Positions 4,673 through 31,863 of a stretch of 32,849 nt of DNA are shown here, in pieces; within the stretch, counting starts at the first letter, position 1; each line of letters opens with the position of its first letter. Location of the stretch: the NCBI GenBank assembly GCA_024635555.1, contig JAGXIO010000168.1:1-32849 (forward strand), read 5' to 3'. The notes below the pieces were generated by a model. It made no database searches and had not been told where the DNA came from. It saw only the letters and a program-made list of their open reading frames with translations. Source of the DNA: Saccharicrinis sp. (GTDB lineage: Bacteria; Bacteroidota; Bacteroidia; Bacteroidales; Marinilabiliaceae). A program made the position numbers and the translations under genes.

Positions 4673-6460
4673 ATGATTCAAGGATTCAATAGTATTTTTA
4701 CAGAGGAACAGATAACGGGAGCAAAAAAACTGTATGCTTCCCTGTCCGCCAATCAGCGACTTTGGATGTCGGGCTATTTGGCCGGATTAAATGGATCCGG
4801 AAGCTTACTCGAGGATCTTCCTCTTAACGGAACCTCGCAACCTATGGTGGCAGAAGTTGAGCAGATTCATCTCACTATTTTGTACGGAACCCATACGGGC
4901 AATTCAAAAATTTTGGCCGAACAGACCAAGGAGTTGGCGCAGAGTTACGGGATTGAAGTGGGATTAACGAGTTTGCAAGAGTACAAGGTGCGAAAGCTCA
5001 AAGAAGAAACAAATTTATTGGTTATCGTTTCTACACATGGCGAAGGGGATCCACCAGTTTCGGCAGAGGAGTTTTATGCCTATATTTTCGGTAAAAAAGC
5101 GCCTCAGTCAAGCCATTTGAACTTTGCGGTTATTGGGTTGGGCGATAGTAGTTATGCCAAGTTTTGCCAAACAGGAAAAGATATTTATCAGCAGCTCAAT
5201 GTACTGGGTGCTAAGGCTGTTCATGAAATGATTGAATTGGATGTTGACTACAAAGATAGCATTGCGGCCGTCCTACCTGCTTTGGTGGCTAAATTTGGTG
5301 CTAAGCTTAATGGCAATGCAAGTGTGCCCACAGTGTTACTGCAAACTGCCGTGTCTGTCGACGAATGGGTTGAAGCGGAGGTTTTGGAGAAAATACTTTT
5401 AAATGGCACCGGTTCTGCAAAGGAAACCTATCATATCGAATTAGATATTGAAGGTAGTGGCCTACAATATCTTCCGGGCGATGCACTCGAGGTGATGGCT
5501 AAAAATAGCCCTGGATTGGTAAAGGAGGTGTTGGCCAAGCTCAATATAGACCAAAACAACAGCGTAAAGTTGGGCGATGCCACCTTGACCATAGAAGAGG
5601 CACTGATTTCTAAGTTTGAATTAACGGTGGTTACCAATCCCGTGATTAAAAAGTATGCCGAAAAAGCTGGCAACAAGCAACTTGATGAATTAATAGCTGA
5701 TGACCCAAAACTGCAAGAGTATTTATACGGCGCTGATTTTCTGGATGTAATTAACGATTTTCCGACACCTTTGGATGCAGATGCTTTGGTGTCCTTATTA
5801 CGAAAGTTGCCCACACGTCTGTATTCCATATCATCAAGTTACGCCTATAACCCCGATGAGGTACATGTTACAGTGGGGGCGGTTCGATACCAGCGCAACA
5901 ATAGGGAGCATCATGGGGTCTGTTCGGGTTATCTGGCCGATACGATAAATGAAGGCGACACGATATTGGTGAGGGTTAAAAGTAATGTGAGTTTTAAACT
6001 TCCTACAGATAACGATGTACGTATAGTTATGGTGGGACCCGGAACTGGTATTGCGCCATTCCGTTCCTTCCTTCAGGAGCGAGAAGCTTTAGACGCAGGA
6101 GGTAAAAATTGGCTATTCTTCGGCGATCAACACTTCGAAACAGATTTTCTGTATCAAACAGAATTGCTTGCCTACCGAAAAAATGGGGTGGTTGATAAAC
6201 TGGATGTGGCTTTTTCGCGCGACCAACACGAAAAGGTGTATGTACAGGATCGAATGCGCGAAAGCGGAGAGGAGCTTTACAACTGGCTGAACGAAGGGGC
6301 GCATTTTTATGTTTGCGGAGATATGAAACGAATGGCCAAAGATGTAAAGGATACTTTGTTGCAGATTATAAAAAAATATGGTAATCTCTCGGATGAGCAA
6401 GCACAGGAGTATTTTAAAAATTTAAAGTCAACAGGGCGTTTCCAGGAAGATGTATACTAA
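4673..6460 (+). CDS. cysJ: Assimilatory sulfite reductase (NADPH) flavoprotein, alpha subunit
   Basis: Passes electrons from NADPH through FAD and FMN to the CysI hemoprotein, which reduces sulfite to sulfide. The 595 residues are close to the roughly 600 of enterobacterial CysJ. The FMN-binding flavodoxin domain (about 65-205) shows LYGTHTGNSKILAEQ, STHGEGDPP and VIGLGDSSYAKFC. The FAD-binding domain shows RLYSISSSY (about 382-390) and CSGYLAD. The NADPH domain shows GPGTGIAPFRSFLQERE and YVCGDMKRMAKDV, ending GRFQEDVY. No strong promoter is visible in the 165-bp gap after cysK, where only a 4-bp hairpin (GGGT...ACCC near 4568) was seen. The next gene is cysI, separated by a palindromic repeat. 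Confidence 0.95.
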   Translation: MIQGFNSIFTEEQITGAKKLYASLSANQRLWMSGYLAGLNGSGSLLEDLPLNGTSQPMVAEVEQIHLTILYGTHTGNSKILAEQTKELAQSYGIEVGLTSLQEYKVRKLKEETNLLVIVSTHGEGDPPVSAEEFYAYIFGKKAPQSSHLNFAVIGLGDSSYAKFCQTGKDIYQQLNVLGAKAVHEMIELDVDYKDSIAAVLPALVAKFGAKLNGNASVPTVLLQTAVSVDEWVEAEVLEKILLNGTGSAKETYHIELDIEGSGLQYLPGDALEVMAKNSPGLVKEVLAKLNIDQNNSVKLGDATLTIEEALISKFELTVVTNPVIKKYAEKAGNKQLDELIADDPKLQEYLYGADFLDVINDFPTPLDADALVSLLRKLPTRLYSISSSYAYNPDEVHVTVGAVRYQRNNREHHGVCSGYLADTINEGDTILVRVKSNVSFKLPTDNDVRIVMVGPGTGIAPFRSFLQEREALDAGGKNWLFFGDQHFETDFLYQTELLAYRKNGVVDKLDVAFSRDQHEKVYVQDRMRESGEELYNWLNEGAHFYVCGDMKRMAKDVKDTLLQIIKKYGNLSDEQAQEYFKNLKSTGRFQEDVY

Positions 6461-6482
6461 AAACTATAGTGGTTAGGAGGAA

Positions 6483-6665
6483 TACCCCGGGATTCCACGT
6501 GTCGCCATAGCTTTACCGCGTTCGCATAAAGCTTTAGCGGTTGAGAAGCGGAGGAGCAAATCCCGGGTCTAGTCAAGACCGTTTTAAACAAAACAACTTT
6601 TTATAACTAGGCACGGCATTCATGCCGTTTAAAATTACACAGTGTTTTTCGGTTTTAACCGAAAC
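6483..6665 (+). repeat. Intergenic multi-palindrome repeat, copy A (between cysJ and cysI)
   Basis: Shares ordered blocks with the copy at 11994-12131: TACCCCGGGAT ... AATCCCGGGTCTAGT, then AACTAGGCACGGCAT-(T/C)ATGCCGT, then TCGGTTTTAACCGAAAC, on the same strand. Each block is an inverted repeat: CCCGGGAT/ATCCCGGG type arms, ACGGCAT/ATGCCGT at about 6613-6628, and TTTCGGTT-TT-AACCGAAA at 6647-6664. Here the first palindrome is opened by about 60 extra bases that contain their own arms (AGCTTTA/TAAAGCT). The repeat ends 18 nt before the cysI ATG. Confidence 0.8.
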
Positions 6666-6683
6666 TCTAAAAAACTAAAAATA

Positions 6684-8417
<1,734 letters not shown>

Positions 8418-8447
8418 TGTCCTAAATCTTAAACTTACAGGAATACG

Positions 8448-8678
8448 ATGAAAGAAAAACGCTATAGAACATTACTGAAGACCGTTTCCTGGAGGCTGAC
8501 GGGTACAATCGATACTTTTTTGATATCATATTTAATCACGGGGAAAATTGCTTTGGCTCTTTCTATCAGTGGGGTAGAGGTTTTTACAAAAATGATATTG
8601 TATTATTTTCACGAAAGAACTTGGAACAGGGTTAAGTATGGCACGGAAGAAATAAAGCGTCCCGAGTATTATATTTAA
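8448..8678 (+). CDS. DUF2061 family small membrane protein
   Basis: A 76-residue protein with the DUF2061 pattern: basic start (MKEKRYRTLLKTVSWRLTGTIDT), hydrophobic segment FLISYLITGKIALALSISGVEV, FTKMILYYFHERTWNRVKYG, and a polar end. Probably one or two membrane spans. The family has no assigned reaction, but its members are often found within or fused to sulfate-assimilation genes. Here it sits 30 bp after cysI and 10 bp before the siroheme synthase start, clearly inside the operon. A role in sulfite/sulfate handling at the membrane is inference. Confidence 0.85.
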   Translation: MKEKRYRTLLKTVSWRLTGTIDTFLISYLITGKIALALSISGVEVFTKMILYYFHERTWNRVKYGTEEIKRPEYYI

Positions 8679-8688
8679 ATAAATGCTT

Positions 8689-9165
8689 ATGAATTTTTTA
8701 CCTATTTCTATAAATGTGCTGAACGAGCAGATCTTAATTGTGGGGGGAGGTAAATTGGCGCACAGCAAGGTGCTTTTGCTCAAAAGGTTTACCCATAGTT
8801 TTAAAATTATTGCACCTGCAATAGTTGACGACTTAAAGCAATTAGATGGCGTTGTTTGTGTTGAGCGTCAATACAGGGCAACGGACCTCGATGGGCATCT
8901 TTTGGTTTATGCGGCTACCGATGACCATCAACTGAATCACCAAATACAGGTTGATGCTAAAAACTACCGTTGTTTGGTTAGTGTGGCCGATGATCGGAAG
9001 GCCAGCGATTTTGTTTCGCCCGCTATTTATAAACAAGGCTACATGACTGTTTCGGTGGGTTCTAACGGTGAAAACTTGGGTGCATCCATATTATTGCGAG
9101 ATAAAATTAAAGCTTTTTTGGAGGCCGATCCTTTTTGTCCGCCCCTAAAAGAGGTGAAAATTTAA
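8689..9165 (+). CDS. Precorrin-2 dehydrogenase / sirohydrochlorin ferrochelatase (Met8/CysG N-domain type)
   Basis: Converts precorrin-2 to sirohydrochlorin with NAD and inserts iron to give siroheme, the CysI cofactor. It has 158 residues. It begins MNFLPISINVLNEQILIVGGGKLAHSK, with the Rossmann NAD loop GGGKLAHSK, followed by ATDDHQLN and VSVADDRKASDFVSPAIYKQGYMTVSVGSNGEN, all hallmarks of the CysG N-terminal domain. It is shorter than the CysG N-domain (about 215) because the C-terminal helical part is minimal; compact versions seem normal in Bacteroidota. ATG 8683 is two codons upstream in frame; 8689 fits the family better. The methyltransferase that makes precorrin-2 is in the next gene. 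Confidence 0.9.
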   Translation: MNFLPISINVLNEQILIVGGGKLAHSKVLLLKRFTHSFKIIAPAIVDDLKQLDGVVCVERQYRATDLDGHLLVYAATDDHQLNHQIQVDAKNYRCLVSVADDRKASDFVSPAIYKQGYMTVSVGSNGENLGASILLRDKIKAFLEADPFCPPLKEVKI

Positions 9166-9278
9166 ACAATTACAGCAGATTGACCAAAGTATTATTCTTT
9201 GTTAAAAATCAAACTGCTGCGCTGCAAAAAAAAACAGCATTCAGGGAAAAAAATATTCACATTGATTATTATAAACAT

Positions 9279-11063
9279 ATGGCAGATATTAGGATAATCA
9301 TTCAGGAAAGGTACCAAAGGTTTATTGCTTTGGATGAATTAAATCAAAGACTTGATCCAACTGAGGATAAATTGGTGTTTGAGGTTTACGGAGATAAGGA
9401 GAGATTAAGAATTTTGTTGCCGGATGAGGAGCTAGATTCATGGTACGATATTATGGAAGAGTCTATTTCTTCTGGCAAAGCCGATGCTTTTGTATGGCCA
9501 GCCGATGAATTGCCTTATCCGCTAAATCCGCAATTGGATGTGTTGGCTTTATGTGTTAAACAGCATGCAAGGGATAAAAATACCGTTCTCGCAAAAGAAA
9601 ATATCCAAGCCAGTCACCCGCTTAGTGGGTATGTGGCCATTGTGGGTAAACGTGAAAATAAGGATTTGTTGAGCAGATTTGAGCGCTATGATGTAAAGGC
9701 TAATTGGGGCAAGGTGGCACTAGCAGGGTTTGGTCCCGGTGATCATGAACTGATAACCAAAAAAGCTGCACATCAACTGGAAACCTGCGACGTTATTTTT
9801 TACGATGATTTGGTGAATGAAGACTATTTACAAAATTTTGCTGCTGAAAAAATATATGTGGGCAAACGGAAAGGTCAGCATAAATTCGACCAGGAAATTA
9901 TTAATGAACTGATGTACCGAGAGGCACTTAAGGGAAGGAATGTGGTTAGGATAAAAGGAGGTGATCCATTGATATTTGGACGGGGTGCCGAGGAATATCA
10001 TTACTTGCAAAGCCGCATGATACAAACCACTATTATTCCCGGAATATCCAGTGCTTTTGCAGCTGCGGCCCATGCCGTTATACCTTTTACGGAACGTTCT
10101 CTGTCATCTTCGGTTGTTTTGCTTTCAGGACACGATATACATAAGTTAAGGATACCGCAGGCAGATACCCTGGTATTTTATATGGGTGCATCCAATCAAA
10201 AGGAATTGGCTAGGGAGATTATTGTACAGGGATGGCCCGACAGTACACCCGTTGGTGTGGTGTATAATGTGAGCAATCCCGGCCAGCAGATTTATCGTGG
10301 TACTTTGGAAGATTTAATGCAAAACGGATCAGGGTTGCCATCGCCTTCTATTATCATCGTTGGCAAAACGGCGGGATATTATTCATCATCAGATAAAAAA
10401 TGGCTTTATACAGGTGCTTCTATCGATGAGGTTAAATTGCGTGGGCATTTGGTGCACACACCGTTGATTTCCATAGAGGCTGCCACATTGGATGAAAACG
10501 TTAAAACCGTAATTGAAAACTTATCGTCCTATCAAAGGATAATTTTTACAAACAGATATGCAGTAAACCATTTTTTCGACAAACTTTGCGAATTGGGTAT
10601 GGACGTGCGCAATTTGCATGGTATCCGTATCGACTCCATAGGTAAAACAACGTCAAAAGCTTTAAAAAGTATTGGTTTGGTAGTGCCGCCTTTGTCCGAA
10701 AATGAGTCGGTAGATGGAATGTTAGATATGTATGGTAAAGAGCGGACTAGCGGTGAGAATATTATTATACCTTGCTCCAATCAATCTTCTAAGGTGCTTC
10801 AAAATGGATTGTATGGCATGGGTAACAAAGTCGAATCGTTACAAGTGTATGCTGTTGTAAAAAACAAAGCCATCATCAAACAAAATCTAACACGCTTTCA
10901 AGGGCTCGTATTTTCGTCCCCAGCAACGGTAGAGGCTTTTTTAGAAATTTATGGCGAAATTCCAACCCATCTGCAGGTGAAATGTGTGGGGGCATTAACC
11001 AAAAAAGCGGTTCACAACGCATTGGGAAATACAAGTGAAGTAAGTTCGCGCAGGGCGGTTTAA
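9279..11063 (+). CDS. Fusion: degenerate HemC-like domain + uroporphyrinogen-III C-methyltransferase (SUMT/CobA) + uroporphyrinogen-III synthase (HemD)
   Basis: 594 residues in three parts. Residues 1-~140 resemble domain 1 of hydroxymethylbilane synthase (SSGKADAFVWPADELPYPLN matches the HemC stretch around its catalytic aspartate), but the KD pair is changed to DE and the cofactor-binding Cys domain is missing. Residues ~143-385 are SUMT: KVALAGFGPGDHELITKKA, VVRIKGGDPLIFGRGAEE, PGISSAFAAAAHAVIPFTERS, LLSGH. Residues ~390-594 are HemD-like: HTPLISIEA, RIIFTNRYAVNHFF, GKTTSKAL, LVFSSPATVEAFL. Together HemD closes the tetrapyrrole ring and SUMT methylates it to precorrin-2 for the preceding gene. 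The start at ATG 9279 removes 48 residues that a longer frame (TTG 9135) would take from inside the siroheme gene. Confidence 0.88.
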   Translation: MADIRIIIQERYQRFIALDELNQRLDPTEDKLVFEVYGDKERLRILLPDEELDSWYDIMEESISSGKADAFVWPADELPYPLNPQLDVLALCVKQHARDKNTVLAKENIQASHPLSGYVAIVGKRENKDLLSRFERYDVKANWGKVALAGFGPGDHELITKKAAHQLETCDVIFYDDLVNEDYLQNFAAEKIYVGKRKGQHKFDQEIINELMYREALKGRNVVRIKGGDPLIFGRGAEEYHYLQSRMIQTTIIPGISSAFAAAAHAVIPFTERSLSSSVVLLSGHDIHKLRIPQADTLVFYMGASNQKELAREIIVQGWPDSTPVGVVYNVSNPGQQIYRGTLEDLMQNGSGLPSPSIIIVGKTAGYYSSSDKKWLYTGASIDEVKLRGHLVHTPLISIEAATLDENVKTVIENLSSYQRIIFTNRYAVNHFFDKLCELGMDVRNLHGIRIDSIGKTTSKALKSIGLVVPPLSENESVDGMLDMYGKERTSGENIIIPCSNQSSKVLQNGLYGMGNKVESLQVYAVVKNKAIIKQNLTRFQGLVFSSPATVEAFLEIYGEIPTHLQVKCVGALTKKAVHNALGNTSEVSSRRAV

Positions 11064-19289: not shown

Positions 19290-22200
19290 ATGAAGTTTCT
19301 TCCTCGCGCTGTATTATTTTTCGCAGCTATTTTGTGTTTGAACCTAAACGCTCAAACAGGTACAAAGTTTTGGTTTGTGGCTCCTGATGCCTACCAAGGT
19401 CACGGCGATAAACCATTGTATTTTAGGATAACCACTTTCGAAAAGTCTGCTTCAGTTACTATTTCGATGCCTGCAAATAGTAGTTTTACGCCAAAAACCG
19501 AAAATATAGGTGCAAATATGTTTGCAACTATTGAAGTGGATAAAAAGGATGTAGAAAATCAACCAGCAAACAGTGTAAATAGCAAAGGAATATTAATTGA
19601 GTCCTCTGCACCTATTACTGTTTATTATGAAATAGCAAATGTTGGCAATCCAGATAAGTTTACTTTAAAAGGAGATAATGCATTGGGTAAGGAATTCTAC
19701 ATTCCTTCACAAAATGTTTATGCTAACATGGCTAAATATTCCGGCAATGCGAATGAAAAAGTAGATATCGTAGCTACCGAGGATAATACCACTGTTACCA
19801 TTGTTCCCACCGTTGATGTTACTGGACATAGCAAAGGTGTGCCGTACGATATTAATTTAAATTTAGGCGAAACGTACAGCATTGAATACAGGGATATTTC
19901 AGCTTCAGCCTCAATGGCGGGAACTTATATCACATCAAACAATCCAATCGCTTTAACTATTACCGACGATTCAATTAATGAAACCGATCACCCACATGAT
20001 ATTATTGGCGATCAAATGATACCCACTTCCATAATTGGTACGGAATATATTGCGGTAAGAACCAGTACGGATACAAATGCCGCTCAAAAAGTGTTTGTTT
20101 TAGCAACAGAAGACGATACCTATGTATTTATAAATAATGATAATAATTTGGTTCGCCATCTCAAACGAGGAGAACTTAGCGGTTTTGATATTACGGATAA
20201 TGCCATATATATAAACGCAACTAAGCCAGTGTATGCCTACCAGGTATCAGGCCTTGCGAATATTAACGCCAAGGATAATGCCAATGAATTAGGTTCGGCG
20301 CTTTTGCCCACTATTGAATGTACAGGATCGATAAGAGTTGCTTTTACCCGTGTCTTTGCTCGTAATTTTTGGGTTCAAATCCTTACTCAAAGTAAGAATA
20401 GAGACAGCTTTGTAATGTACGATAATAATAAAAGCAAGGTTGACTACATCGATAATTTGCAGTGGATTAAAGTTAAAGGAACAGATACTGGCAATCCTGA
20501 TGAAACATGGTATTCAGCAATTATAAATATGAATGTTTCAACGGGAGTGCCTTATACAATTGAAAATACCAAAGGGCTTTTTCATTTAAGCGTACTCGAC
20601 GAAAACGATCCGAAAACTTCTGTTGGTAGTGTGAGCTACGGTTATTTTTCATCCTATGGTAGAATGCGTGTCGAGGGTCCGTCGCAAGAGTGTGATGGCA
20701 AAGAGATTGTATTATCCACCAGTATAAATATGAGTAGTTATCTCTGGTTCTCAAAATCTACTGGTAACTCGGTTTTATCAACAGATAGAGAGTTCCGTGC
20801 TAATCGATCAGATACTTATTGGGTAACAGCCCAAATGCTGCACGGAGGTTGTGTTATTACAGATAGTTTGGATGTAGAGTTTGTTATGCCAAAAATATCA
20901 TTGGGTAATGATACAATCGTATGCCCGGGAGAGATTGTAAAATACGATTTACCAACAGGCTACCCTAGCTATGTATGGAGTAATTCAAATACAAATAATA
21001 GTGCTTCTATAAGTGTGGGTGAGGGTTTTGCAGAAAACCTGTCGGTTACCGTAACTGATGAGTTTGGATGTGAAGCTGATGCTGATGTTAGGATTGAGGC
21101 TTTTGATGTGCCAAAAATTAACTTGAATAAAACCGCAGTATGCCAAGGACAGAAAATAATAAATACAACTACGTTTCAAAAATATCAGTGGGAATTTAAA
21201 GGCAATATATTGAATGCTGATCCTACGAAAAATTTTATTATTCCTGCGGAATCCGGAAAATATACCCTGACCGTATGGAGTGTTAACGGATGCGAACAAT
21301 CAAAAGAATTTGACATCGTAGTAAATGAATTGCCAGCATTCACCTTAAGTGATGAATGGTCGTGCGACAATAGTTCCAAACGCATCAATGGGCCAATTGG
21401 TACAGGGTATAAATACCTGTGGAGCACGGGTGCAACAACTTCGCACATCGATTTAACAAGTCCTGCCGACTATGCACTTCAAGTAACCGATGCCAATGGT
21501 TGTGTAGATTCAGCCAAGGCACATTTTGATTGGTACGATTTACAAGCTATTGATTTAGGTGAGGATAGAGAAGAGTGTGTAGGTATTACCCTAGATATTG
21601 AAGGATCAGCAACACACACCAACTTTGTGTGGAAGTATAAAAAAACTCCTGTCGACAACGAAGTAATTCTTCCCACACCCAGCCCTGATGAGAATATCTA
21701 TCAAATTACAAATGCTGTTGTTGGTAATTCAGGTATTTATATGGTAGAGGCCATGGATAAAAACGGATGCCCGGTGACCGATACGGTTAACGTAAATTTT
21801 TATAGTGCTAATCCTCCGGTTTTGAAGATAGAGCGAGATTTGTGTAAAGGAGATACAATACAAATATTTGCCTCCAATGGTTACGATACGTATAAATGGT
21901 TACATAATGATGCCGCTTTGCCTCTGCCAAGTTCACAAGAATCTATTGAGGTATCCTTAGGAGGTATATATAAACTTGAGGCTAGTTATGGTACATGTCT
22001 TAAAAAAAATGAGATAAACGTTACATCTTACAAACTTCCAACTGTAAAAGTATCCGATGATTTTTCAATTTGTCAGGATGATGCTGGTACGATAAGTATG
22101 GTATCCTTTTCGTCTCCTGATGGTTATGATTTCGATTATTTGACATGGAATAATCAGGATAAAAAGCACTTTGATCCAAATTCGGTTTATAAAGTAACAG

Positions 22201-23840
22201 AAGCTGGGAACTACACTATTACAGCCTATGATGAACATGGCTGTTCAGCAAGCGATCAGGTTGATGTAGGTATTTTTGCACCTACTGTTATGGCACAAAT
22301 ACCACCTGTTAAAGCCTGTGAGAATATTGGTGTTACACTAACGAATCCTTTGCTAAATGCATTGTCGTATCAATGGTATAAAATGGATGCTGTTGCAGAT
22401 GTTTTAGTATCAGATAGCGCGCCATGGCCAGTTACCCAATCCGGTACCTATGGTTTAAAGGTGATTGACGCCAATGGTTGCCCAAGCCAAACGGAAAGGG
22501 TTGTGAGTATTTTACCTGTTCCCACTTTAAATTTGGGTTCGGATGTTGATTTATGTGAGGGTGAATCGGCCATATTAAAGTCCCCCGAAGTCTATGCCGA
22601 GTATCAATGGAACGGAAATCCGATGCTAAATACTCCAAGTATAACGGTGCAGTCAACCGGAACATATACTTTATTGGTTAAGAATGTTGAGGGCTGCGAA
22701 ACCCAGGATCAGATTAATGTAACATTGCGCCCATCACCAGTATTTAATTTGCCTGATGAACAGGTTTGTCCCGGCACATACGTTTCGTTAACCGTACCTG
22801 CTGGCATTTCCGATTTTGAATGGTCCACTGGTGAAACCACCCCAACGATAAATGTGGGCAAAGGAAATTATTGGTTAAAAGCAAAAAATAATTTTGGTTG
22901 CGTCGCAGTAGATACTGCCAGAGTAATTTGGTATCCAGTTCCCAATGTAAGTTTGGGTACAGATACACTTATTTGTCCCTTGGATCATTTGCAATTGGAT
23001 GCTGGTGTTGGTTTTGCTTCATATAAATGGCACAACGGTGCTAACGCACAACAAATTATAGCGCAGATGCAAGACACCATTAATCTCGTTCAGGTGCAAA
23101 ACGAACATGGATGCTATGGTTTTGATACTAAAACAGTTCGATTTTTATTCCGACCAGATGTAAATCTATGTTCCGATACATCTGTATGTAAAAAAGACAC
23201 TTTTGATATTGATGCCGGGGCAAATTTTATCACTTACTTATGGAATGATAATGATTCCCTCACAGACCAAAGCATACGCGTTTCCGAACCAGGTAGATAT
23301 TGGGTAGAGGTTACAGATGGTTGTATGATTTTTAGGGATACAGCAAGTATTGTGTATCACGAACTTCCTATGATTACCCGTTTAGATACCACAATATATG
23401 CAAGGGTAGCAGTATTAGTTGAAGGAGGCAAAGGCCCCTATACATACAGCATCAACAATTCTTTTCAAGGAAATGATAATGTATTCAATAACCTCAAGGC
23501 CGGTGAACATATTATTGAAATAGAAGATTATTACGGTTGTAAAGCATTAGCCACAGTATTTTTAAGTGAGGATTTTGAGGTAGTGATACCCCCATTTTTC
23601 ACACCTAATAATGATGGAATTAACGACAGATGGGAAATAGAAGGTATAGAGAAGTTTCCCGATACCATTATCAAAATTTATGATCGTTACGGAAAGCTTT
23701 TGATAAAATATTTAGCCTCCGATCCGGGATGGGATGGACGTTATCAGGGTCAGCCTGTACCTACAGACGACTACTGGTATGTTGTTGAATCTCCAGTAAA
23801 CAGTAAAAAACACAAAGGGCATATTACCTTAAAAAGGTAA
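19290..23840 (+). CDS. Giant secreted multi-Ig-like protein with T9SS type B sorting domain
   Basis: 1516 residues. Signal peptide 1-21 (ending LNLNAQ). Residues about 22-450 resemble the IgGFc-binding N-terminal domain (GTKFWFVAPDAYQGHG, PITVYYEIANVG, ALGKEFYIPSQNVYAN). Then about 11 Ig/PKD-like repeats of 75-90 residues, each with a start such as LGNDTIVCPGE or LGSDVDLCEGE, a W/Y core (YVWSN, YQWNG) and an end like VTDANGCVDS, giving one likely disulfide per repeat. The last ~85 residues are a CHU_C/type B C-terminal domain: FFTPNNDGINDRWEIEG, IKIYDRYGKLL, WDGRYQGQPVPTDDYWYVV, HKGHITLKR. It is exported by T9SS and probably attached at the cell surface as an adhesin. The PorP/SprF partner follows 52 bp downstream. 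Confidence 0.92.
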   Translation: MKFLPRAVLFFAAILCLNLNAQTGTKFWFVAPDAYQGHGDKPLYFRITTFEKSASVTISMPANSSFTPKTENIGANMFATIEVDKKDVENQPANSVNSKGILIESSAPITVYYEIANVGNPDKFTLKGDNALGKEFYIPSQNVYANMAKYSGNANEKVDIVATEDNTTVTIVPTVDVTGHSKGVPYDINLNLGETYSIEYRDISASASMAGTYITSNNPIALTITDDSINETDHPHDIIGDQMIPTSIIGTEYIAVRTSTDTNAAQKVFVLATEDDTYVFINNDNNLVRHLKRGELSGFDITDNAIYINATKPVYAYQVSGLANINAKDNANELGSALLPTIECTGSIRVAFTRVFARNFWVQILTQSKNRDSFVMYDNNKSKVDYIDNLQWIKVKGTDTGNPDETWYSAIINMNVSTGVPYTIENTKGLFHLSVLDENDPKTSVGSVSYGYFSSYGRMRVEGPSQECDGKEIVLSTSINMSSYLWFSKSTGNSVLSTDREFRANRSDTYWVTAQMLHGGCVITDSLDVEFVMPKISLGNDTIVCPGEIVKYDLPTGYPSYVWSNSNTNNSASISVGEGFAENLSVTVTDEFGCEADADVRIEAFDVPKINLNKTAVCQGQKIINTTTFQKYQWEFKGNILNADPTKNFIIPAESGKYTLTVWSVNGCEQSKEFDIVVNELPAFTLSDEWSCDNSSKRINGPIGTGYKYLWSTGATTSHIDLTSPADYALQVTDANGCVDSAKAHFDWYDLQAIDLGEDREECVGITLDIEGSATHTNFVWKYKKTPVDNEVILPTPSPDENIYQITNAVVGNSGIYMVEAMDKNGCPVTDTVNVNFYSANPPVLKIERDLCKGDTIQIFASNGYDTYKWLHNDAALPLPSSQESIEVSLGGIYKLEASYGTCLKKNEINVTSYKLPTVKVSDDFSICQDDAGTISMVSFSSPDGYDFDYLTWNNQDKKHFDPNSVYKVTEAGNYTITAYDEHGCSASDQVDVGIFAPTVMAQIPPVKACENIGVTLTNPLLNALSYQWYKMDAVADVLVSDSAPWPVTQSGTYGLKVIDANGCPSQTERVVSILPVPTLNLGSDVDLCEGESAILKSPEVYAEYQWNGNPMLNTPSITVQSTGTYTLLVKNVEGCETQDQINVTLRPSPVFNLPDEQVCPGTYVSLTVPAGISDFEWSTGETTPTINVGKGNYWLKAKNNFGCVAVDTARVIWYPVPNVSLGTDTLICPLDHLQLDAGVGFASYKWHNGANAQQIIAQMQDTINLVQVQNEHGCYGFDTKTVRFLFRPDVNLCSDTSVCKKDTFDIDAGANFITYLWNDNDSLTDQSIRVSEPGRYWVEVTDGCMIFRDTASIVYHELPMITRLDTTIYARVAVLVEGGKGPYTYSINNSFQGNDNVFNNLKAGEHIIEIEDYYGCKALATVFLSEDFEVVIPPFFTPNNDGINDRWEIEGIEKFPDTIIKIYDRYGKLLIKYLASDPGWDGRYQGQPVPTDDYWYVVESPVNSKKHKGHITLKR

Positions 23841-23892
23841 CTAACCTGTATGATCAGATAAAATCATTAACTAAAATCAAAATATTAAATTA

Positions 23893-24903
23893 ATGAAAAG
23901 ATTCCTGGCCATATGTTTTGTACTAGGGTTGTTAAATAGTGTTGGGGCACAAAGATATTACGTAACCAATTTGTATATTTACGATACCTTTTTGATGAAT
24001 CCGGCCGCTGCGGGCAAGGACAAGTCATGCTACAGTTTTGGCGCCAATTATCAAAACCAATGGATGGGCATGGATAAGTCGCCAACCACTCAAATGCTTA
24101 ACTTTCAGGGGCCATTAACCCAAACTTTAGGAATGGGAAGCTACATCTATAACGATCGTAACGGAAACATGAATCAATTTGGTTTGCATCAAGCTTTTTC
24201 GCACGAAGTAGTTCTTAAAAAATCCCGTCGACAAGTAATAACAATGGCTTTTGGTTTAGGTTTAACGGTAGAGCAAGTCCGCATTGATGAGAGTGATTTA
24301 AATACACCGTCTGGTATTTTAGATCCTGCAATAAGTGGTGGAATATCTTCAGGATGGGGGATGAATGTGAATTCGGGCGTAATATTTAAGTATAACGATT
24401 ATGAGTTGGGATTTTCATTAAACAATATGATAGACCAAGTTAATCCTATTTATTTGAATGATGATGAACCTGGTTTAGCAACCGACTATCATCTCCATCT
24501 ATCCTCATTATATAAATTAGTGGATCGGGATATTTACCTAGAGCCACTCATCATGTTCCGTAGAAATAGTAACAACGATAACAGACTTGATCTAACGCTC
24601 AAAGGCACCTTTCCTACCCCCAGCCCAAATTATGCAATGTGGGGTATGGTTTCGTACAGACGAAACGTAGATCATAGATTAGGGAAAAGCCTTGGACTTG
24701 GAACGACTGTAGGCGTAAATTATCAGCGGTGGAGTTTTGGGATGGAATTTCAATTGGGTTTAACGGGCGCACAGTATGATTATGGAAGTGCATATAAGGT
24801 TGTAACAAGATACACCATATGTAATAATTTAAAAAACAAAGCTATACCTTGTTCCGAAGCACGAAAAAACAAGCGTTCGAGGTATGAAGGATTAAGTTGG
24901 TAA
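23893..24903 (+). CDS. PorP/SprF family T9SS outer membrane protein (first copy)
   Basis: 336 residues. Signal peptide 1-19 (ending SVGAQ), then the family hallmark near the N-terminus YDTFLMNPAAAGKDKSCYSF and NQWMGMDKSPTTQMLNFQGPL, followed by a beta-barrel with alternating strands (GMGSYIYNDRNGNMNQFGL, GFSLNNMIDQ). SprF-type proteins are needed for secretion or surface attachment of their neighbouring type B cargo. Here it follows the giant cargo by 52 bp and is 3 bp from the next, smaller cargo, so it probably serves one or both. Confidence 0.93.
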   Translation: MKRFLAICFVLGLLNSVGAQRYYVTNLYIYDTFLMNPAAAGKDKSCYSFGANYQNQWMGMDKSPTTQMLNFQGPLTQTLGMGSYIYNDRNGNMNQFGLHQAFSHEVVLKKSRRQVITMAFGLGLTVEQVRIDESDLNTPSGILDPAISGGISSGWGMNVNSGVIFKYNDYELGFSLNNMIDQVNPIYLNDDEPGLATDYHLHLSSLYKLVDRDIYLEPLIMFRRNSNNDNRLDLTLKGTFPTPSPNYAMWGMVSYRRNVDHRLGKSLGLGTTVGVNYQRWSFGMEFQLGLTGAQYDYGSAYKVVTRYTICNNLKNKAIPCSEARKNKRSRYEGLSW

Positions 24904-24906
24904 TAG

Positions 24907-25848
24907 ATGATACGAATGAATTGGTTTAATGTAATAGTTGTTTTTATTTTGATGTGGTTGGGGATCAATGATAATTGTGCCGGCTCAAACCGCAATGCAA
25001 TTGTCTCACAGGAAATAAAAGCATATTCCGATTTTGTTACGGGGGATGAGGGGCAAGTATTTATTATCTATGTATTAAATAATGATCAGGGCATCTCAGC
25101 CGGCATTAGCTCCTTAGAAATAATACAACAGCCAAAGCTAGGCGTTGCAGAAGTGGTGGATGCATTTGCCATAAAATACACGCCTGCTCCCGGTAAGGTA
25201 GGAGCGGATGAGCTTTGGTATAAGGTATGTGGCAAGGATGAATCCTGCGATGAGGCAAAAGTTATCATCCAAGTTCTCGATTATGATTTTATCCCCATAG
25301 CTAATAATGATACTGTTTTTATTGAGCCGGGAGAGAAGAGCGAAGTGAACGTGTTAACAAACGATAGCAATCTATTTGACCTTCCCTTACAACTAAGCAT
25401 TGTTACGTACTTAAAAAATGGAGATAGCAATTTAGATTCTCTTGGGTTGCTAACAAGTACTTTCAACGAAACATACCGTGGAATGGATTCCTTACAGTAT
25501 CAGGTTATCGACAAAGAAGGAGACTACAACAGCGCATGGGTGTTTTTTCAAATCAATGGGGGTGAGAATGATAAAATTTTCATCCCACAAGGCATTTCTC
25601 CTAACGGGGATGGACTCAATGATGTGTTTACTATTCCGGATTTACAGGGCAACACAATGGAAATAAAAGTTTTTGATGTTCTTGGTCAGTTGGTCTATTC
25701 AGAAGCAAATTATGCCAACAATTGGGATGCAAGAGGCAATACGGGAAAATACGCAGGAAGGACATGCGATAATGGGACGTATTATTTTTTATTAAAAGTA
25801 AAAGGTTTTAAAAAGGATTTTTCAGGCTTTTTACACATAAATAAATAG
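24907..25848 (+). CDS. Small T9SS type B cargo with cadherin-like/Big_9-type repeats
   Basis: 313 residues. Signal peptide about 1-25 (VIVVFILMWLGINDNCAG). Two repeats of the tandem-95/Big_9 kind follow: VTGDEGQVFIIYVLNNDQG..LEIIQQPKLGVAEVVDAFAIKYTPAPGKVGADELWYKV and IANNDTVFIEPGEKSEVNVLTND. The last ~90 residues are a type B CHU_C sorting domain: FIPQGISPNGDGLNDVF, MEIKVFDVLGQLVY, NNWDARGN, NGTYYFLLKVKG, FSGFLHINK. It is a short surface protein, perhaps an anchor or cap for the giant one. It sits between two PorP/SprF genes with gaps of 3 and 11 bp, so all are likely translated from one mRNA. Confidence 0.9.
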   Translation: MIRMNWFNVIVVFILMWLGINDNCAGSNRNAIVSQEIKAYSDFVTGDEGQVFIIYVLNNDQGISAGISSLEIIQQPKLGVAEVVDAFAIKYTPAPGKVGADELWYKVCGKDESCDEAKVIIQVLDYDFIPIANNDTVFIEPGEKSEVNVLTNDSNLFDLPLQLSIVTYLKNGDSNLDSLGLLTSTFNETYRGMDSLQYQVIDKEGDYNSAWVFFQINGGENDKIFIPQGISPNGDGLNDVFTIPDLQGNTMEIKVFDVLGQLVYSEANYANNWDARGNTGKYAGRTCDNGTYYFLLKVKGFKKDFSGFLHINK

Positions 25849-25859
25849 GATTACTGGGG

Positions 25860-26852
25860 ATGAAACGATGGAAACGGTTAATGATAAGGACAGTTTTGGG
25901 TGCATTAGCATGTTTCGCCGGAAAAGGTGTATTTGCTCAATACGAAACTTCCTCTGCACGATATATGCACTCTCAGTATTTTATTAACCCCGCGTATTCG
26001 GCCACTTCAAATGTGATGACAGCTAATTTGATGGCGCGTAAACAATGGTTTGGTATTGAGGGTTCTCCTTCGGGCTATCGTGTTGCACTGTATTCACCCA
26101 TAAACAAAACTTTAATGTCAGTTGGGGGGGGAGTGAGTTTGGAGCAGCACGGAATCAACAAAGTATATGTAGGAACATTGAGTTATGCATATTTGGTAAA
26201 GTTATCACCCGTAACATTTTTATCGCTAGGTATTAGTGCAAATGCAGGAAGCCATCAAATAGCATTTAATGATCTTAACCTCACGCACAATAATGATCCC
26301 AGCTTTTCTTCTACTACAGAAAGTCAAACTATTTTAAATGCAGCCGGTGGTGCTTATTTATACTCACGAAGTTTCTATATGGGCTTATCCGTATCCAATT
26401 TAATAGCATTGCAAAATGACGATCAGCAGTTTGAATTGAGCCCTATGCTGCGAAAAAGACAGTATTACATGGCAACCGGATATAATTTCAATCCCGATGG
26501 ATTTTTTAGTGTGAAGCCTTCTGTTTTGTGTAGGTACGAAAGTGAGGATAGATACAATGTGAGTGGGGGTATTCAGCTTTTATTTAATGAATTATTCTGG
26601 GTGGGAGCCACCTACGGAAACGACGGATGGATGTCGAGCATGCTCAATGTAAGGGTAAACAAAAACCTTGAAGCAGGGTATATTTTCGATTTTGCATCAG
26701 GCATCAACATGATAAATCGTTCTAGCCACGAAATTGTTATCACATACAGTTTAGATTCCTTTATGAAAAACAATAAAAATCGTGCATTCGGTGTACGCAA
26801 GGCAAAAAAAGATAAAACTCTGAATAGTATAAAATCAATGCGAAACTTTTAA
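25860..26852 (+). CDS. PorP/SprF family T9SS outer membrane protein (second copy)
   Basis: 330 residues. Signal peptide ends near GVFAQ (about residue 27). The family start MHSQYFINPAYSATSNVMTANLMARKQWFGIEGSP is clear, followed by a beta-barrel (PINKTLMSVGGGVSLEQHG, YVGTLSYAYLVKLSP, LNAAGGAYLYSRSFYMGLSVSN). It ends with a basic tail. It is 11 bp after the small cargo, completing a cargo-SprF-cargo-SprF unit, which suggests each cargo has its own partner. The two SprF-like proteins differ clearly, so this is not a recent tandem duplication. Confidence 0.93.
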   Translation: MKRWKRLMIRTVLGALACFAGKGVFAQYETSSARYMHSQYFINPAYSATSNVMTANLMARKQWFGIEGSPSGYRVALYSPINKTLMSVGGGVSLEQHGINKVYVGTLSYAYLVKLSPVTFLSLGISANAGSHQIAFNDLNLTHNNDPSFSSTTESQTILNAAGGAYLYSRSFYMGLSVSNLIALQNDDQQFELSPMLRKRQYYMATGYNFNPDGFFSVKPSVLCRYESEDRYNVSGGIQLLFNELFWVGATYGNDGWMSSMLNVRVNKNLEAGYIFDFASGINMINRSSHEIVITYSLDSFMKNNKNRAFGVRKAKKDKTLNSIKSMRNF

Positions 26853-26883
26853 TTTTGTATGTTTAAACAAAATTTTAATCGCA

Positions 26884-28146
26884 ATGAAATCCAAGATACT
26901 CGTTTCTGCTTTAATATTGTTGGTCGTATTTTTTACCGGTAACTGGATATATGGCAACATATCGGCCAAAAAACTTGATTTATACTTACAGCAATTTCCC
27001 ATTAACTCCAGGCCATATTATACCGATCTTAAGGTTAATCCGCTCTGTTCAAAAATCACATTCAAAAATTTTTCCCTGGTTTATCCTAACTCAAATTTTA
27101 AAATAGAAAGTGATGTGTTATATGTAAAAATAAAGCATAGCGAAGCCATGGAGATATCCAAAACGCGAAGGGTGGATAAACTTACCGGTTTAGCTTTGGA
27201 TTTTGAGAATGCAAAGCTTAGCGGAAATGATGAGGCTATTTTTGCAGGCAAAAACGTAAAAATTAATTTTGATGGAGATATGAGTAGCCAAAAGTACCAG
27301 GCGATGAATGTGAACTTTCCCGATGAAAAACAACAACTAAGTTTAAAAATTGAGGAAGGCGCATGGATGCAGAACCCCACGAAAGATAACTGGCTCACCC
27401 GGTTTTTAATAGGATCAAATAAAATTGAGTATGCTGATATTCAAATAGTATTGAATCATGGCGAACACACAATTGATTTTGATAAAGTTAAGATAAACAC
27501 TGGAACGTTACAAATGGAAGGGAATGCAAAGGTGTATTATGCCGGGCAAGGACTCAATGATTTTGTTCCCTACCAAATAAACATGAAATACGATTTGCGG
27601 TCTAACGATCAATTCAATTGGGGCGAAAGTAATGCTGGCGGAAAGTATAGCTTGCAGTCCTTCAATTCTACTTTTGACGGTGAGCTAAAACTGGACGAAA
27701 ACTACGATTTAAAGTCGTCCTTTTCCAAAATGAAATTTAGCCTGAATTTAAAAGATTTGAATGTGGAATATGATGGAGAATCAGGCTCTGGCATGGAAGC
27801 TCAGCTAATGATGTTGGGGCTCAAACCAGAGGATCTGAGGGTGGATGAGCTGGTATTCAATACCCAAATAAATGACGGTAGATGTATCGTAGATAATGCG
27901 AAGCTGGTTTTGCCAGTGCTGGTGGCCACCTTAAACGCCGATATAAAAATGCACGGTGTTAATATGGATAGCACAGAAATTGAAACAATGGAAATGCGTA
28001 TCGCTAACATCGAACCAAACTTACAATCTTCGTTAGTAAGCTTTGAACGAACATTCGGTTTTAGAATTCCACGCGATGGTGATGATATTCTGCTGCAAAT
28101 AAAAGGTTCGTTAGGGCACCCACAGATTAAGGGGATTCATTATTAA
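26884..28146 (+). CDS. Membrane-anchored periplasmic protein of unknown function, AsmA/YdgA-like
   Basis: 420 residues. One N-terminal membrane anchor (about 4-24, ILVSALILLVVFFTGNWIYG), then a beta-rich periplasmic part with repeated paired strands (KITFKNFSLVYPNSNFKIESDVLYVKI, FDGELKLDENYDLKSSFSKM, VDELVFNTQINDGRCIVDNAKLVLPVL) and the end GDDILLQIKGSLGHPQIKG. This pattern resembles AsmA-like and DUF945/YdgA-like proteins, some of which act in lipid transport or envelope assembly, but no family match is certain. It follows the second PorP/SprF gene by 31 bp on the same strand. The gap contains TATGTTTA, close to a -7 element, so it may also have its own promoter. Confidence 0.55.
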   Translation: MKSKILVSALILLVVFFTGNWIYGNISAKKLDLYLQQFPINSRPYYTDLKVNPLCSKITFKNFSLVYPNSNFKIESDVLYVKIKHSEAMEISKTRRVDKLTGLALDFENAKLSGNDEAIFAGKNVKINFDGDMSSQKYQAMNVNFPDEKQQLSLKIEEGAWMQNPTKDNWLTRFLIGSNKIEYADIQIVLNHGEHTIDFDKVKINTGTLQMEGNAKVYYAGQGLNDFVPYQINMKYDLRSNDQFNWGESNAGGKYSLQSFNSTFDGELKLDENYDLKSSFSKMKFSLNLKDLNVEYDGESGSGMEAQLMMLGLKPEDLRVDELVFNTQINDGRCIVDNAKLVLPVLVATLNADIKMHGVNMDSTEIETMEMRIANIEPNLQSSLVSFERTFGFRIPRDGDDILLQIKGSLGHPQIKGIHY

Positions 28147-28511: not shown

Positions 28512-28545
28512 GGATAAATAAAATATGTGTGTTTTAAAAGGGCGG

Positions 28546-31500
28546 ATGGATATGAGAGGGTTAAAATTACATCGTTTATTGGATACAAGTATTTGGATCA
28601 AATTACTTGTAATTTTTTTTCTTTTTTCTTCTACGTTAGATGCTCAAATAAAGAACTTGCATTTTAACATGCTTACCAGTGATGACGGCCTAGTATCAAA
28701 TGGAATTAACTACGTTTTTGAGGATAATGTGGGTTTTATTTGGTTTGGAACCAACGCAGGGCTGAATAAATATTCTGGTTACGATTTTAAACTGTATGTG
28801 CATATCCCTAACGATAGCAACAGTTTGATCAATAATAATATACTGGCAATTGTTGAAGAAAAATCAAGTGGTAATCTTTTTGTGGGTACCAAAGAAGGTT
28901 TATCTTATTTTGATCAATCAGTCGAGCGCTTCATCAATTTTAAACAAATGTCAGGGTTTTCTATAAATGCCCTAAAGTATGATCAAAATAACAATTTATG
29001 GATTGGCTCTACACAAGGCCTTTTCAGAATGAATAAAGATGGATCCTTTAAACATTTTCCGCAGAGTGATAGTAACGATGGAAGTATTCTTAATGAGTCA
29101 GTTAATAGTATTGAGATTCAGGATTCGAAAAACTTATGGATTGGGACGCTTAAAGGCTTGTATCGCTTTGATATGGATAGTGGAACCTTTACTCATCACA
29201 CAAAAACACCCAATGTTGTTAACGTGATCAGTTTAACCAAAGACTCGAAGAATAACTTGTGGGTTGCAAGCGATTTATGGGGACTGTATTTAATGAAACC
29301 AAATGGCTTTGAGGAGGAAATGACCAAATACTCCAAAGAAAATGGCTATTTATTGAACAATAGAATTCATGGGATATCAGAAGATGTAAATGGAGGTTTA
29401 TACCTAGCCGACAGAGACGGAGGATTGATTTATTTTGATCCCATGAAAAATAAAGTATCTTTTTTTGTGCCCGATTTGTATAATACACAAAGTCTAAGCA
29501 ATAAAGCACTAACATCTATTGTTTTAACATCTAAAAATATATTATGGCTCGGAACTTTTAATGGAGGTGTTAATTATGTAGATTTCAATAGGAAGCAGTT
29601 CGAACATTATAAATTTAATTTTAAAGCGGATGGTATTTTTAATAATAATATTCGTTCAGCTTTTCAAGATAGCGAAGGGATTATCTGGATAGGTACAAAA
29701 GAAAGTGGAGGACTTAGCCGATTTAATCGGGAGAAAGGAACGTTCAAAAATTATAAAACCATTAAGAATGATGCCTCTAGCTTTCAAGATGAGTACGTGT
29801 TTTCAATTAATGAATTGGACAAAAACAATTTGCTAATAGGCACATTTAAAAAAGGCCTAGCTATTTTTAATAAGAAAACAGAACGCTTTCGTCATTTTAT
29901 GATGAATGAAAACGATTCCAATGCCATTGTGAGTAACAGGGTTTATGCCATCCATAAAGATAAGCAGGGTACTTTTTGGATTGGCATCTCTAATTCGTCT
30001 AAGGAATCGGGTGTGGTAAGCACATTTAATCCGCAAAACTATAAATTTACACCTGTGCCTGGTATCGAAATGGTGAGGTGTTTTTATGATGAGAACGACG
30101 AGTTGTTGTGGATGGGTACAATGAATAATGGACTTTATCTTTACAATACAGTAACTGGCCAAAAACAACATTTTCTGTCTAATCTAAAGGACTCAACCTC
30201 AATTGGCAGTAATAGTATTACGGGCTTAGTTAAGAATAATCAAGGGAATTTGTGGATTGCTACCGATGGTGGAGGTTTATCCGTAATGGATAAAAAAACT
30301 CGAAAGTGTAAAGTGTTCAATACCGAAAATTACTTGCCTACAGATCGGATTTTCGGTTTGCAGATCGACAATGCTCAAAATGTTTGGTTAAGTACCGATA
30401 TTGGACTAATCCGTTTTAACCCTTCAGATAAAGAAGTTTTGGTATATGATGCCTCTGATGGGCTTCAAGGAAAGGAATTTTCAAGTTATGTATCGTTAAA
30501 AACAGACAATGGGGAGATGTTGTTTGGAGGAAACAATGGATTTAATCTGTTTAATCCTGAACTCATTAGTAAAAATACTTTTAAGCCTAATGTGGTGTTA
30601 ACTGATTTTAAACTATTTAATAAATCGGTTGAAATCGGGAAAGAAGGATCCCCCTTAACCAAGTCCATTTCTCAGACTGACAAAATTGTTTTAAATCATA
30701 AGCAGAGTGTAATAAGATTTGAATTTACAGCCTTAAATTTTACATCTTCCGAAAAAAATAGCTACACTTACCGTCTGGAAGGTTTTGATGAAGACTGGAT
30801 TTATGTTGGAAATAAAAAAGAAGCAGGATATACAAATCTTCCAGCTGGGGATTATGTTTTTAGGGTCAAAGCCGCTAATAACGATAATGTTTGGAATAAC
30901 GAAGGAGCTTCTATTGTAGTTATTGTAAAAGCTGCATGGTACAATACCTGGCTTTTTCGCATTTTGGCAATCTTCTTTGTCTTAGCGATCTTTATTAATT
31001 TTTATCGCAGAAGAACTAAAGTTTTGAAGAAAAATCAGCGCATTCTTGAGCAAAAAGTGGAGGAAGCTGTCAATGCTGTTAAATTGCGAAATGAAAAGTT
31101 AGAAGAGGCGAGGCAAAAAAATGCAAGTATCATTACGGATGTTAAATCTAAATTAGGTCAGGCATCTGTGGAGTTGCTTGAGGCCACCAATAGCCAGGCT
31201 TCAACAATAGAAGAAATATCGGCCTCGATGAAGCAAATGGCTGACGTTATCAATCTCAATGCAAAAAGTGCCGAGGATATGTATGCCAATGCAAACAGTG
31301 TGAAAACTGATGCGCAGACGAGCGTTGATATTGTAAAGAAAACAGCTGGTTCGATTGAGAAAATAACACAAGGCCTTGGTTTTGTAACTAATTTTGCACG
31401 TATTACCAATTTACTATCCTTAAACGCAGCAGTAGAAGCAGCACGAGCAGGTGAACATGGAAGATCGTTTGCGGTTGTAGCCAATGAAGTGAAAAAGCTT

Positions 31501-31779
31501 GCTGATCAATCTCGTGATGTAACGGTAAGTATTTTGAAGGATACAAATTCTGGAATGGAATTGTCGAAAGAGGCCAATGAAAAAATGATGGAACTACAGG
31601 TTTACATCGCTAGTATTGTGGATTTGATTTATAAAATTAGGCAATCCAGTCAGGAGCAGTCGTCCGAAGCCACAAGTGTAAATAATGCCATCCAGCAAGT
31701 GTCGGTTTATATCAATCAAACAGCTCAGTTAGCCGAGAAGTTAGATTCTGCTATTAAGGCTTTGTCGGTAGATGATTAG
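28546..31779 (+). CDS. Periplasmic two-propeller (Reg_prop/Y_Y_Y) sensor fused to a methyl-accepting chemotaxis (MCP) signalling domain
   Basis: 1077 residues. Signal peptide or first span near 15-32 ([18 protein letters not shown]). About 14 Reg_prop motifs follow (such as [45 protein letters not shown]), enough for two seven-bladed propellers. A Y_Y_Y domain (about 715-795, [17 protein letters not shown]) precedes a membrane span (about 800-820, [18 protein letters not shown]) and a coiled coil. Hybrid two-component sensors of this architecture normally continue with a histidine kinase; here the output is an MCP signalling domain with the hairpin tip [37 protein letters not shown] (about 952-988). 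No HAMP and no H/N/G1 kinase boxes are seen. It probably signals through CheW/CheA encoded elsewhere. Starts at 28525 or 28552 are also possible. Confidence 0.92.
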
Positions 31780-31828: not shown

Positions 31829-31863
31829 AAAAAAGGCTCGCCAAATTTAGCGAGCCTTTTTTT
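31829..31863. terminator. Bidirectional rho-independent terminator
   Basis: GGCTCGC (31835-31841) and GCGAGCC (31850-31856) with an 8-nt loop, flanked by an A run on the left and a T run on the right. It lies between the convergent sensor gene and gapA and can stop both transcripts. Confidence 0.92.

What the first reader, a model, noticed from the sequence alone, without database searches (positions are those of the whole stretch)
28546..31779. Propeller/Y_Y_Y sensor with a chemoreceptor output instead of a histidine kinase
Reg_prop-Y_Y_Y proteins in Bacteroidota usually end in a histidine kinase, often with a response regulator and AraC domain, and respond to glycans. Here the same sensory half (14 blades, Y_Y_Y, one span) is joined through a coiled coil to a well-conserved MCP hairpin tip ([11 protein letters not shown]). 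No kinase boxes or HAMP are present. This would couple glycan sensing directly to a CheA/CheW-type array, possibly to steer gliding, and it lies next to T9SS surface-protein genes.
Basis: partly seen in the sequence, partly recalled or inferred. Interest (0 to 1): 0.75.

Follow-up and report, generated by a model that had tools for sequence, protein, structure and literature searches.

The report
Chemoreceptor with a carbohydrate-sensor head
This gene joins the kind of outer sensor that gut and marine bacteria use to switch on carbohydrate-digestion genes to the inner half of a chemotaxis receptor, so the cell may be able to steer by complex carbohydrates rather than only change gene expression.

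Summary
The gene (28525, more likely 28546, to 31779, +) encodes Reg_prop propellers, Y_Y_Y, one membrane span and an MCPsignal domain (86 bits, cut-off 34.6); no kinase or HAMP was found. A profile of the sensor and its relatives matches the BT4663 heparin sensor end to end (604 bits). The hairpin matches Tsr apart from a 7-residue gap in each arm and carries a consensus methylation site. The genome has CheA, CheW, CheR, CheB, CheD, GldL and GldJ; FliG gave no match.

It is a recurrent type: 14 spanning matches in 10 of 71 family genomes. One relative lies downstream of cheY-cheA-cheW; three in one genome lie near polysaccharide-degradation genes. Output halves form one clade; sensor halves do not (AU p 0.0015 and 0.00005). 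The window's sensor groups with kinase-linked sensors of its own genus.

Best reading: a carbohydrate-sensing chemoreceptor made by moving a regulator's sensor onto an MCP output. Ligand, array membership and control of gliding are untested. The T9SS neighbourhood is kept only in the sister species.

The parts
28525..31779 (+). Reg_prop - Y_Y_Y - TM - MCPsignal gene (start probably 28546)
   Evidence: start compared with sister protein
28546..28644 (+). N-terminal hydrophobic export signal (inferred from sequence)
   Evidence: translation; helix 10-42 of the model
28645..30732 (+). double beta-propeller (Reg_prop), BT4663-like periplasmic sensor
   Evidence: Pfam Reg_prop; 4a2l alignment; Foldseek
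30736..30930 (+). Y_Y_Y domain (residues 738-802)
   Evidence: Pfam 69.5 bits
30949..31005 (+). single transmembrane helix (about residues 809-827, read from sequence)
   Evidence: sequence; start of long helix 809-906 in model
31006..31164 (+). coiled-coil linker, no HAMP hit; region where likeness switches from regulators to MCP fusions
   Evidence: Pfam; identity profile
31198..31227 (+). methylation-consensus site [10 protein letters not shown] (residues 892-901)
   Evidence: pattern search; alignment
31267..31704 (+). MCPsignal domain (residues 915-1060)
   Evidence: 86.1 bits; 82.3 bits
31408..31479 (+). hairpin tip region around [16 protein letters not shown] (expected CheA/CheW-contact module)
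31829..31862 (+). terminator-like hairpin after the gene
   Evidence: 4 terminator-like sites found in the region, 2.1 expected by shuffling
19290..28146 (+). context: CHU_C / PorP-SprF surface-protein cluster; syntenic only in the sister species among loci examined

Best explanation
It is a transmembrane chemoreceptor whose ligand-binding part is the periplasmic carbohydrate sensor otherwise found on histidine-kinase regulators (above all hybrid two-component systems, HTCS). Inferred chain: a poly- or oligosaccharide binds the propeller/Y_Y_Y dimer; its closing moves the single membrane helix; a coiled coil without HAMP carries the movement into the MCP hairpin; the tip controls CheA through CheW; CheY-P carries the output; CheR/CheB/CheD adjust the receptor at the [10 protein letters not shown] site. 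The protein arose by exchanging a regulator's sensor onto an MCP output half that is shared by a recurrent set of Marinilabiliaceae-type proteins. Shown here: architecture, homologies, the che genes, the length of the arms relative to other receptors of the genome, the mosaic ancestry and the relatives' gene context. Inferred: ligand class, membership of a CheA/CheW array, and an effect on gliding through the T9SS motor.
For: Pfam architecture (relatives). Sensor like BT4663 by sequence and fold. MCP half matches Tsr at 107-111 bits with a 7-residue gap in each arm, about the same distance from the tip. Of 11 other MCP-type frames of the genome, 6 align to the fusion profile with no gap and 5 show some insertion or deletion. 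Methylation consensus exact in 14 of 16 fusions, 75 residues before the tip match in those 14. CheA x2, CheW x3, CheR x2, CheB, CheD in the genome. In G435 the fusion follows cheY-cheA-cheW on the same strand after a gap of about 440 bases; in G039 a cheA-cheW-MCP-cheR-cheB cluster lies about 2 kb away. All 6 fusion-bearing genomes seen in the order sample have CheW, against 119 of 393 overall. Three fusions in G022 lie near lambda-carrageenase, GH1, GH2, sulfatase, rhamnosidase, GH88 and alginate-lyase-family genes. Mosaic ancestry.
Against: No ligand, binding residue or phenotype was tested. The window locus has no polysaccharide gene cluster among the genes scanned beside it. No HAMP hit, whereas 6 of 9 other MCPs scanned in the genome have one. 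The MCP part of the model has low confidence (mostly about 40-55 pLDDT). In the family, CheW is nearly universal (58 of 60), so co-occurrence there says nothing; three of the six che-positive fusion genomes in the order sample are of one family, so 6 of 6 is not six independent events. L138 and L139 lack the exact methylation consensus. The MCP-half tree is a quick one without bootstrap. The best NCBIfam match of the whole protein is T9SS PorZ, far below its cut-off (111.4 against 260).
Confidence: 0.78

Rival explanations
1. The protein is a chemoreceptor, but its CheA pathway controls something other than movement (for example adhesion, secretion or a second messenger), so it is not a taxis receptor.
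For: The main che operon also holds a YfiR/HmsC-like protein, a STAS-like protein (below its Pfam cut-off) and a HATPase protein. The G435 operon adds another response regulator and 600-aa and 101-aa proteins without a Pfam hit at 1e-5. No FliG match. No CheY target in gliding Bacteroidota with chemotaxis genes was stated in the passages I read.
Against: GldL and GldJ are present. The CheY-like domain of PorX binds GldL in F. johnsoniae, and a substitution that blocks phosphorylation prevents it (PMC10951265, passages), so a receiver-to-gliding-motor link is possible.
Confidence: 0.35
2. The sensor recognises something other than carbohydrate (envelope state, peptide, surface contact); only the fold is shared with BT4663.
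For: The window sensor is 27-28% identical to BT4663 in the structural alignments. The window locus lies beside surface-protein genes and GAPDH, not a polysaccharide locus. PorZ, a T9SS component, also matches weakly.
Against: The closest sensors outside the sister species, L177 and L034, belong to complete HTCS proteins beside SusC/SusD, GH16 and sulfatase genes (L177) or GH88-family, SASA and sulfatase genes (L034). Three related fusions lie near polysaccharide genes. Studied HTCS with this sensor family bind oligosaccharides (PMC3878776, passages).
Confidence: 0.2
3. The C-terminal part is a chance coiled coil or a non-functional remnant.
For: Low AlphaFold confidence there.
Against: 86 bits to MCPsignal, tip kept across 13 proteins, dN/dS about 0.16.
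Confidence: 0.02

Closest known systems
Hybrid two-component systems (HTCS) with Reg_prop/Y_Y_Y sensor, e.g. BT4663 (PDB 4a2l/4a2m)
   Same: Whole periplasmic half: double propeller plus Y_Y_Y
   Different: HTCS end in HisKA, HATPase, receiver and AraC-type domains (as in L177 and L034); this ends in an MCP hairpin
Methyl-accepting chemotaxis proteins, e.g. Tsr (PDB 1qu7, 6s1k)
   Same: Hairpin tip, methylation-type site, two arms
   Different: No HAMP hit; the sensor is a roughly 760-residue double propeller instead of the four-helix-bundle or Cache domain that Pfam names in 3 of 9 other MCPs of this genome scanned; 7 residues shorter per arm than Tsr
Laboratory NarX-Tar and Trg-EnvZ chimeras (seen only as reference titles in PMC3404733)
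   Same: Sensor of one kind on the output of the other
   Different: Those were engineered; this is natural and recurrent
Other propeller/Y_Y_Y proteins of the order ending in SpoIIE-like phosphatase or other outputs (outputs assigned by motif only)
   Same: Same sensor, exchanged output
   Different: Output is not a chemoreceptor

Membership tests
Methyl-accepting chemotaxis protein | MCPsignal domain above curated cut-off | tested here: met
   86.1 bits against 34.6
Methyl-accepting chemotaxis protein | Conserved hairpin tip | tested here: met
   [16 protein letters not shown] kept; alignment with Tsr and own MCPs
Methyl-accepting chemotaxis protein | Two antiparallel arms of matched length | tested here: met
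   7-residue gap in each arm against Tsr; this rests on sequence alignment, the model's helices there have low confidence
Methyl-accepting chemotaxis protein | Methylation site (consensus recalled from general knowledge) | tested here: met
   [10 protein letters not shown] at 892, single match in the protein; methylation itself not tested
Methyl-accepting chemotaxis protein | CheA/CheW partners available | tested here: met
   neighbouring in G435
Methyl-accepting chemotaxis protein | HAMP domain (usual, not defining) | tested here: not met
   no HAMP in Pfam scan
Methyl-accepting chemotaxis protein | Controls CheA in a receptor array | not testable with these tools
   needs biochemistry or cryo-ET
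Hybrid two-component system (HTCS) | Reg_prop/Y_Y_Y periplasmic sensor | tested here: met
Hybrid two-component system (HTCS) | Histidine kinase, receiver and AraC domains | tested here: not met
   none found; it is therefore not an HTCS

The most novel reading that the evidence does not exclude
HTCS-type regulators and chemoreceptors of Marinilabiliaceae-type bacteria draw on one exchangeable pool of carbohydrate sensors: sensors that normally switch on polysaccharide-digestion genes have been moved repeatedly onto a dedicated chemoreceptor output, giving cells that glide toward specific (often sulfated algal) polysaccharides using the same recognition modules with which they regulate digestion.
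Probability: 0.35. Interest if true: 0.8.

Novelty: new variant of a known kind. Interest (0 to 1): 0.62.

Why it matters
If right, it offers a candidate receptor for direct sensing of complex carbohydrates by chemotaxis, in gliding-type bacteria without a detected flagellar motor, and shows that kinase-linked carbohydrate sensors and chemoreceptors are naturally interchangeable. It makes the question of what the che genes of Bacteroidota control directly testable, because ligand candidates can be read from the neighbouring degradation genes of relatives.

Tried and rejected
F373-equivalent Arg at the hairpin tip looked unusual (R in 15 of 16 fusions, 0 of 10 own MCP rows), but R occurs in 71 of 87 other MCP rows, so it is not notable. 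The residue number is recalled.

T9SS adjacency as a functional clue: homologues of the five upstream genes were found in 1 of 12 other fusion loci (L048, the sister species), and none at the G435 and G377 loci. Rejected as strong evidence.

Co-occurrence with CheW inside the family is uninformative: 58 of 60 genomes have it. The order-level sample is better but not phylogenetically independent.

The phylum sample gave a spanning match only in G000 of 395, with at most 4 candidates scored per genome. The order sample scored at most 2 per genome and its match list was cut. The family search scored at most 27 per genome. Absence in these is weak.

Sensor trees: the first (quick, 46 rows) had long branches L047 and L044, which I left out later. 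The second (32 rows) kept 18 of 35 non-fusion rows, because a filter (an N-terminal motif) had dropped 13 of the 18 newly fetched loci and I then dropped 17 rows more. On checking I put the 13 back: third tree (46 rows, 32 of 48 non-fusion rows). One clade of the 13 fusions is rejected more strongly there (p-AU 0.00005 against 0.0015); window + L177 + L034 has 99/97, but L177 alone as the nearest relative falls from 97/84 to 90/50, and that bootstrap had not settled. The MCP label was fixed by output before the trees; the 7-row test was chosen after seeing the first tree. Output labels HK/SpoIIE/other come from motifs in my scripts; only L177, L034 and L035 were checked by Pfam, and L035 is a GAF-containing histidine kinase without receiver or AraC hits, not an HTCS.

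L139 (G386) is a fusion with a different MCP half, outside the clade of 15: apparently a separate origin; its match runs over a TAG near its end. L047 (G036) has Y_Y_Y and MCP but no Reg_prop hit.

Full report
What is there. The frame 28525..31779 (+) encodes 1084 aa. Pfam gives Reg_prop, Y_Y_Y and MCPsignal, all above cut-off, and no kinase or HAMP. NCBIfam matches to chemoreceptor models cover the C-terminus but stay below their curated cut-offs, as does the best match overall, T9SS PorZ.

Sensor half. A profile of 13 relatives aligns to the BT4663 periplasmic domain over nearly its whole length (4a2l, 603.9 bits), then to 3v9f (BT3049) and 3ott (BT4673). The AlphaFold model has mean pLDDT 72, with most of the sensor at 70-95, and Foldseek ranks ten BT4663 chains first. 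BT4663 is described as heparin-sensing, and studied HTCS of this sensor family bind oligosaccharides (PMC3878776, passages only).

Output half. It aligns to Tsr at 107-111 bits with one 7-residue gap in each arm, about equally far from the tip, the pattern expected of a shorter heptad class (heptad classes are recalled, not tested). Of 11 other MCP-type frames in the genome, 6 align to the fusion profile without any gap; 5 have gaps, among them frames cut by contig ends. The methylation consensus (recalled) occurs once in the protein, at 892, and exactly in 14 of 16 fusions, in each of those 75 residues before the tip match.

Chemotaxis genes. The genome (5.33 Mb, 259 contigs, 100% complete, 2.35% contamination) has five CheW-domain places (two CheA, three CheW) and 18 MCPsignal matches, several of them fragments and two below cut-off. 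One operon reads YfiR-like, MCP, STAS-like, receiver, Hpt-like, CheA, CheW, CheW, CheR, HATPase, CheD, CheB (STAS and Hpt below their Pfam cut-offs). A second cluster, cut by the contig end, has CheA, CheW, MCP and CheR. GldL and GldJ exceed their cut-offs and FliG_C has no match.

A recurrent type. In the 71 genomes of the family, 14 matches reach from the Y_Y_Y region to the end of the MCP half, in 10 genomes (at most 27 candidates scored per genome). Twelve start at or near the profile start; those in G036 and G837 start at position 23. The G036 protein has no Reg_prop hit, and the G837 frame (778 aa) was not examined. Pfam confirmed Reg_prop + Y_Y_Y + MCPsignal in the window protein and six relatives scanned (L044, L045, L050, L137, L138, L139); the others rest on alignment. 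Named relatives are Saccharicrinis, Carboxylicivirga and Alkalitalea, which I take as Marinilabiliaceae (Carboxylicivirga: PMC12325347, passages; the other two recalled). In the order sample (393 genomes, at most 2 candidates scored each, list cut) 6 genomes showed fusions; all 6 have CheW, against 119 of 393 (hypergeometric 0.0007 if independent, which they are not). In the phylum sample only the window's genome showed one.

Linkage. In G435 the fusion lies downstream of receiver, CheA and CheW on the same strand, with about 440 bases between cheW and the fusion, so co-transcription is possible but not shown. In G039 a CheA, CheW, MCP, CheR, CheB cluster lies about 2 kb from the fusion on the other strand. 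In G022 the three fusions lie near lambda-carrageenase, GH1, GH2, a sodium:solute symporter, LacI and sulfatase (L044/L172); a SASA esterase and a GLAA-B barrel protein (L045); sulfatases, rhamnosidase, GH88 and an alginate-lyase-family protein (L052/L176). The window's own neighbourhood has no such cluster among the genes scanned. Apart from the che genes of G435 and G039, I did not scan the neighbours of the other fusion loci by Pfam.

Origin. The MCP halves of 15 fusions form one clade among 109 rows (SH-aLRT 98, quick tree without bootstrap), and L139 stands apart. The sensor halves do not: a single clade of the 13 fusions tested is rejected (p-AU 0.0015 in 32 rows; 0.00005 in 46 rows), and so is the window with the five-member fusion clade (p 0.0005; this set was chosen after a first tree). 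In the larger tree the window and its sister group with L177 and L034 of their genus (99/97), then with L035 and L178 (99/99); the five-member clade joins L188 and the four-member clade joins L186, neither labelled MCP by motif. L177 and L034 are complete HTCS with HisKA, HATPase, receiver and AraC-type domains; L035 is a GAF-containing histidine kinase. L177 lies beside SusC/SusD, GH16 and sulfatase genes, L034 beside GH88-family, SASA and sulfatase genes. Identity with L177 is 31-40% in the propellers and 17-23% after residue 850; with the fusion L045 it is 23-26% in the propellers and 66% at 881-915. The junction therefore lies near the membrane helix and linker. The direction of exchange (regulator to receptor or back) is inferred, not tested.

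What is inferred. That the tip drives CheA, that the ligand is a carbohydrate, and that the result is steering of gliding. A CheY-like domain binds GldL in F. johnsoniae (PMC10951265, passages), and motor direction changes when the GldJ C-terminus is deleted (PMC12239597, passages); neither shows chemotaxis control.

In print. Searches for Reg_prop with MCPsignal (0 papers), Y_Y_Y with methyl-accepting chemotaxis (1 paper, passages unrelated), two component regulator propeller with chemotaxis, chemoreceptor with beta-propeller, sensor domain and Bacteroidetes, and HTCS with chemotaxis terms (89 papers hold at least 3 of 4 terms, 15 listed, passages of two read) found no description. The library holds only open-licence papers, so an earlier report may exist.

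Noticed in passing
L139 (G386): A Reg_prop/Y_Y_Y protein fused to a different MCP half, outside the clade of the other 15 fusions: an apparently separate origin of the same architecture.
   Followed up: partly
L047 (G036:C42) and G837:C50: Y_Y_Y plus MCP; in L047 no Reg_prop hit in the N-terminal part, so another sensor may precede Y_Y_Y. G837 not examined.
   Followed up: partly
L140-L163: Propeller/Y_Y_Y sensors of the order also carry SpoIIE-like phosphatase and other outputs (by motif only).
   Followed up: partly
L015:6488-16338 (G000:C205): Che operon with a YfiR/HmsC-like protein, STAS-like protein and a HATPase protein; its output is unknown.
   Followed up: no
window 19290-23840: 1516-aa IgGFc_binding / Ig-like / CHU_C surface protein, followed by two PorP/SprF genes.
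   Followed up: partly
window 26884-28146: 420-aa protein with no Pfam or NCBIfam hit at 0.001, 86% identical in the sister species.
   Followed up: no
window 4673-11063: Flavodoxin-type reductase, nitrite/sulfite reductase and tetrapyrrole methylase/HemD genes: apparent assimilatory sulfite reduction and siroheme cluster.
   Followed up: no
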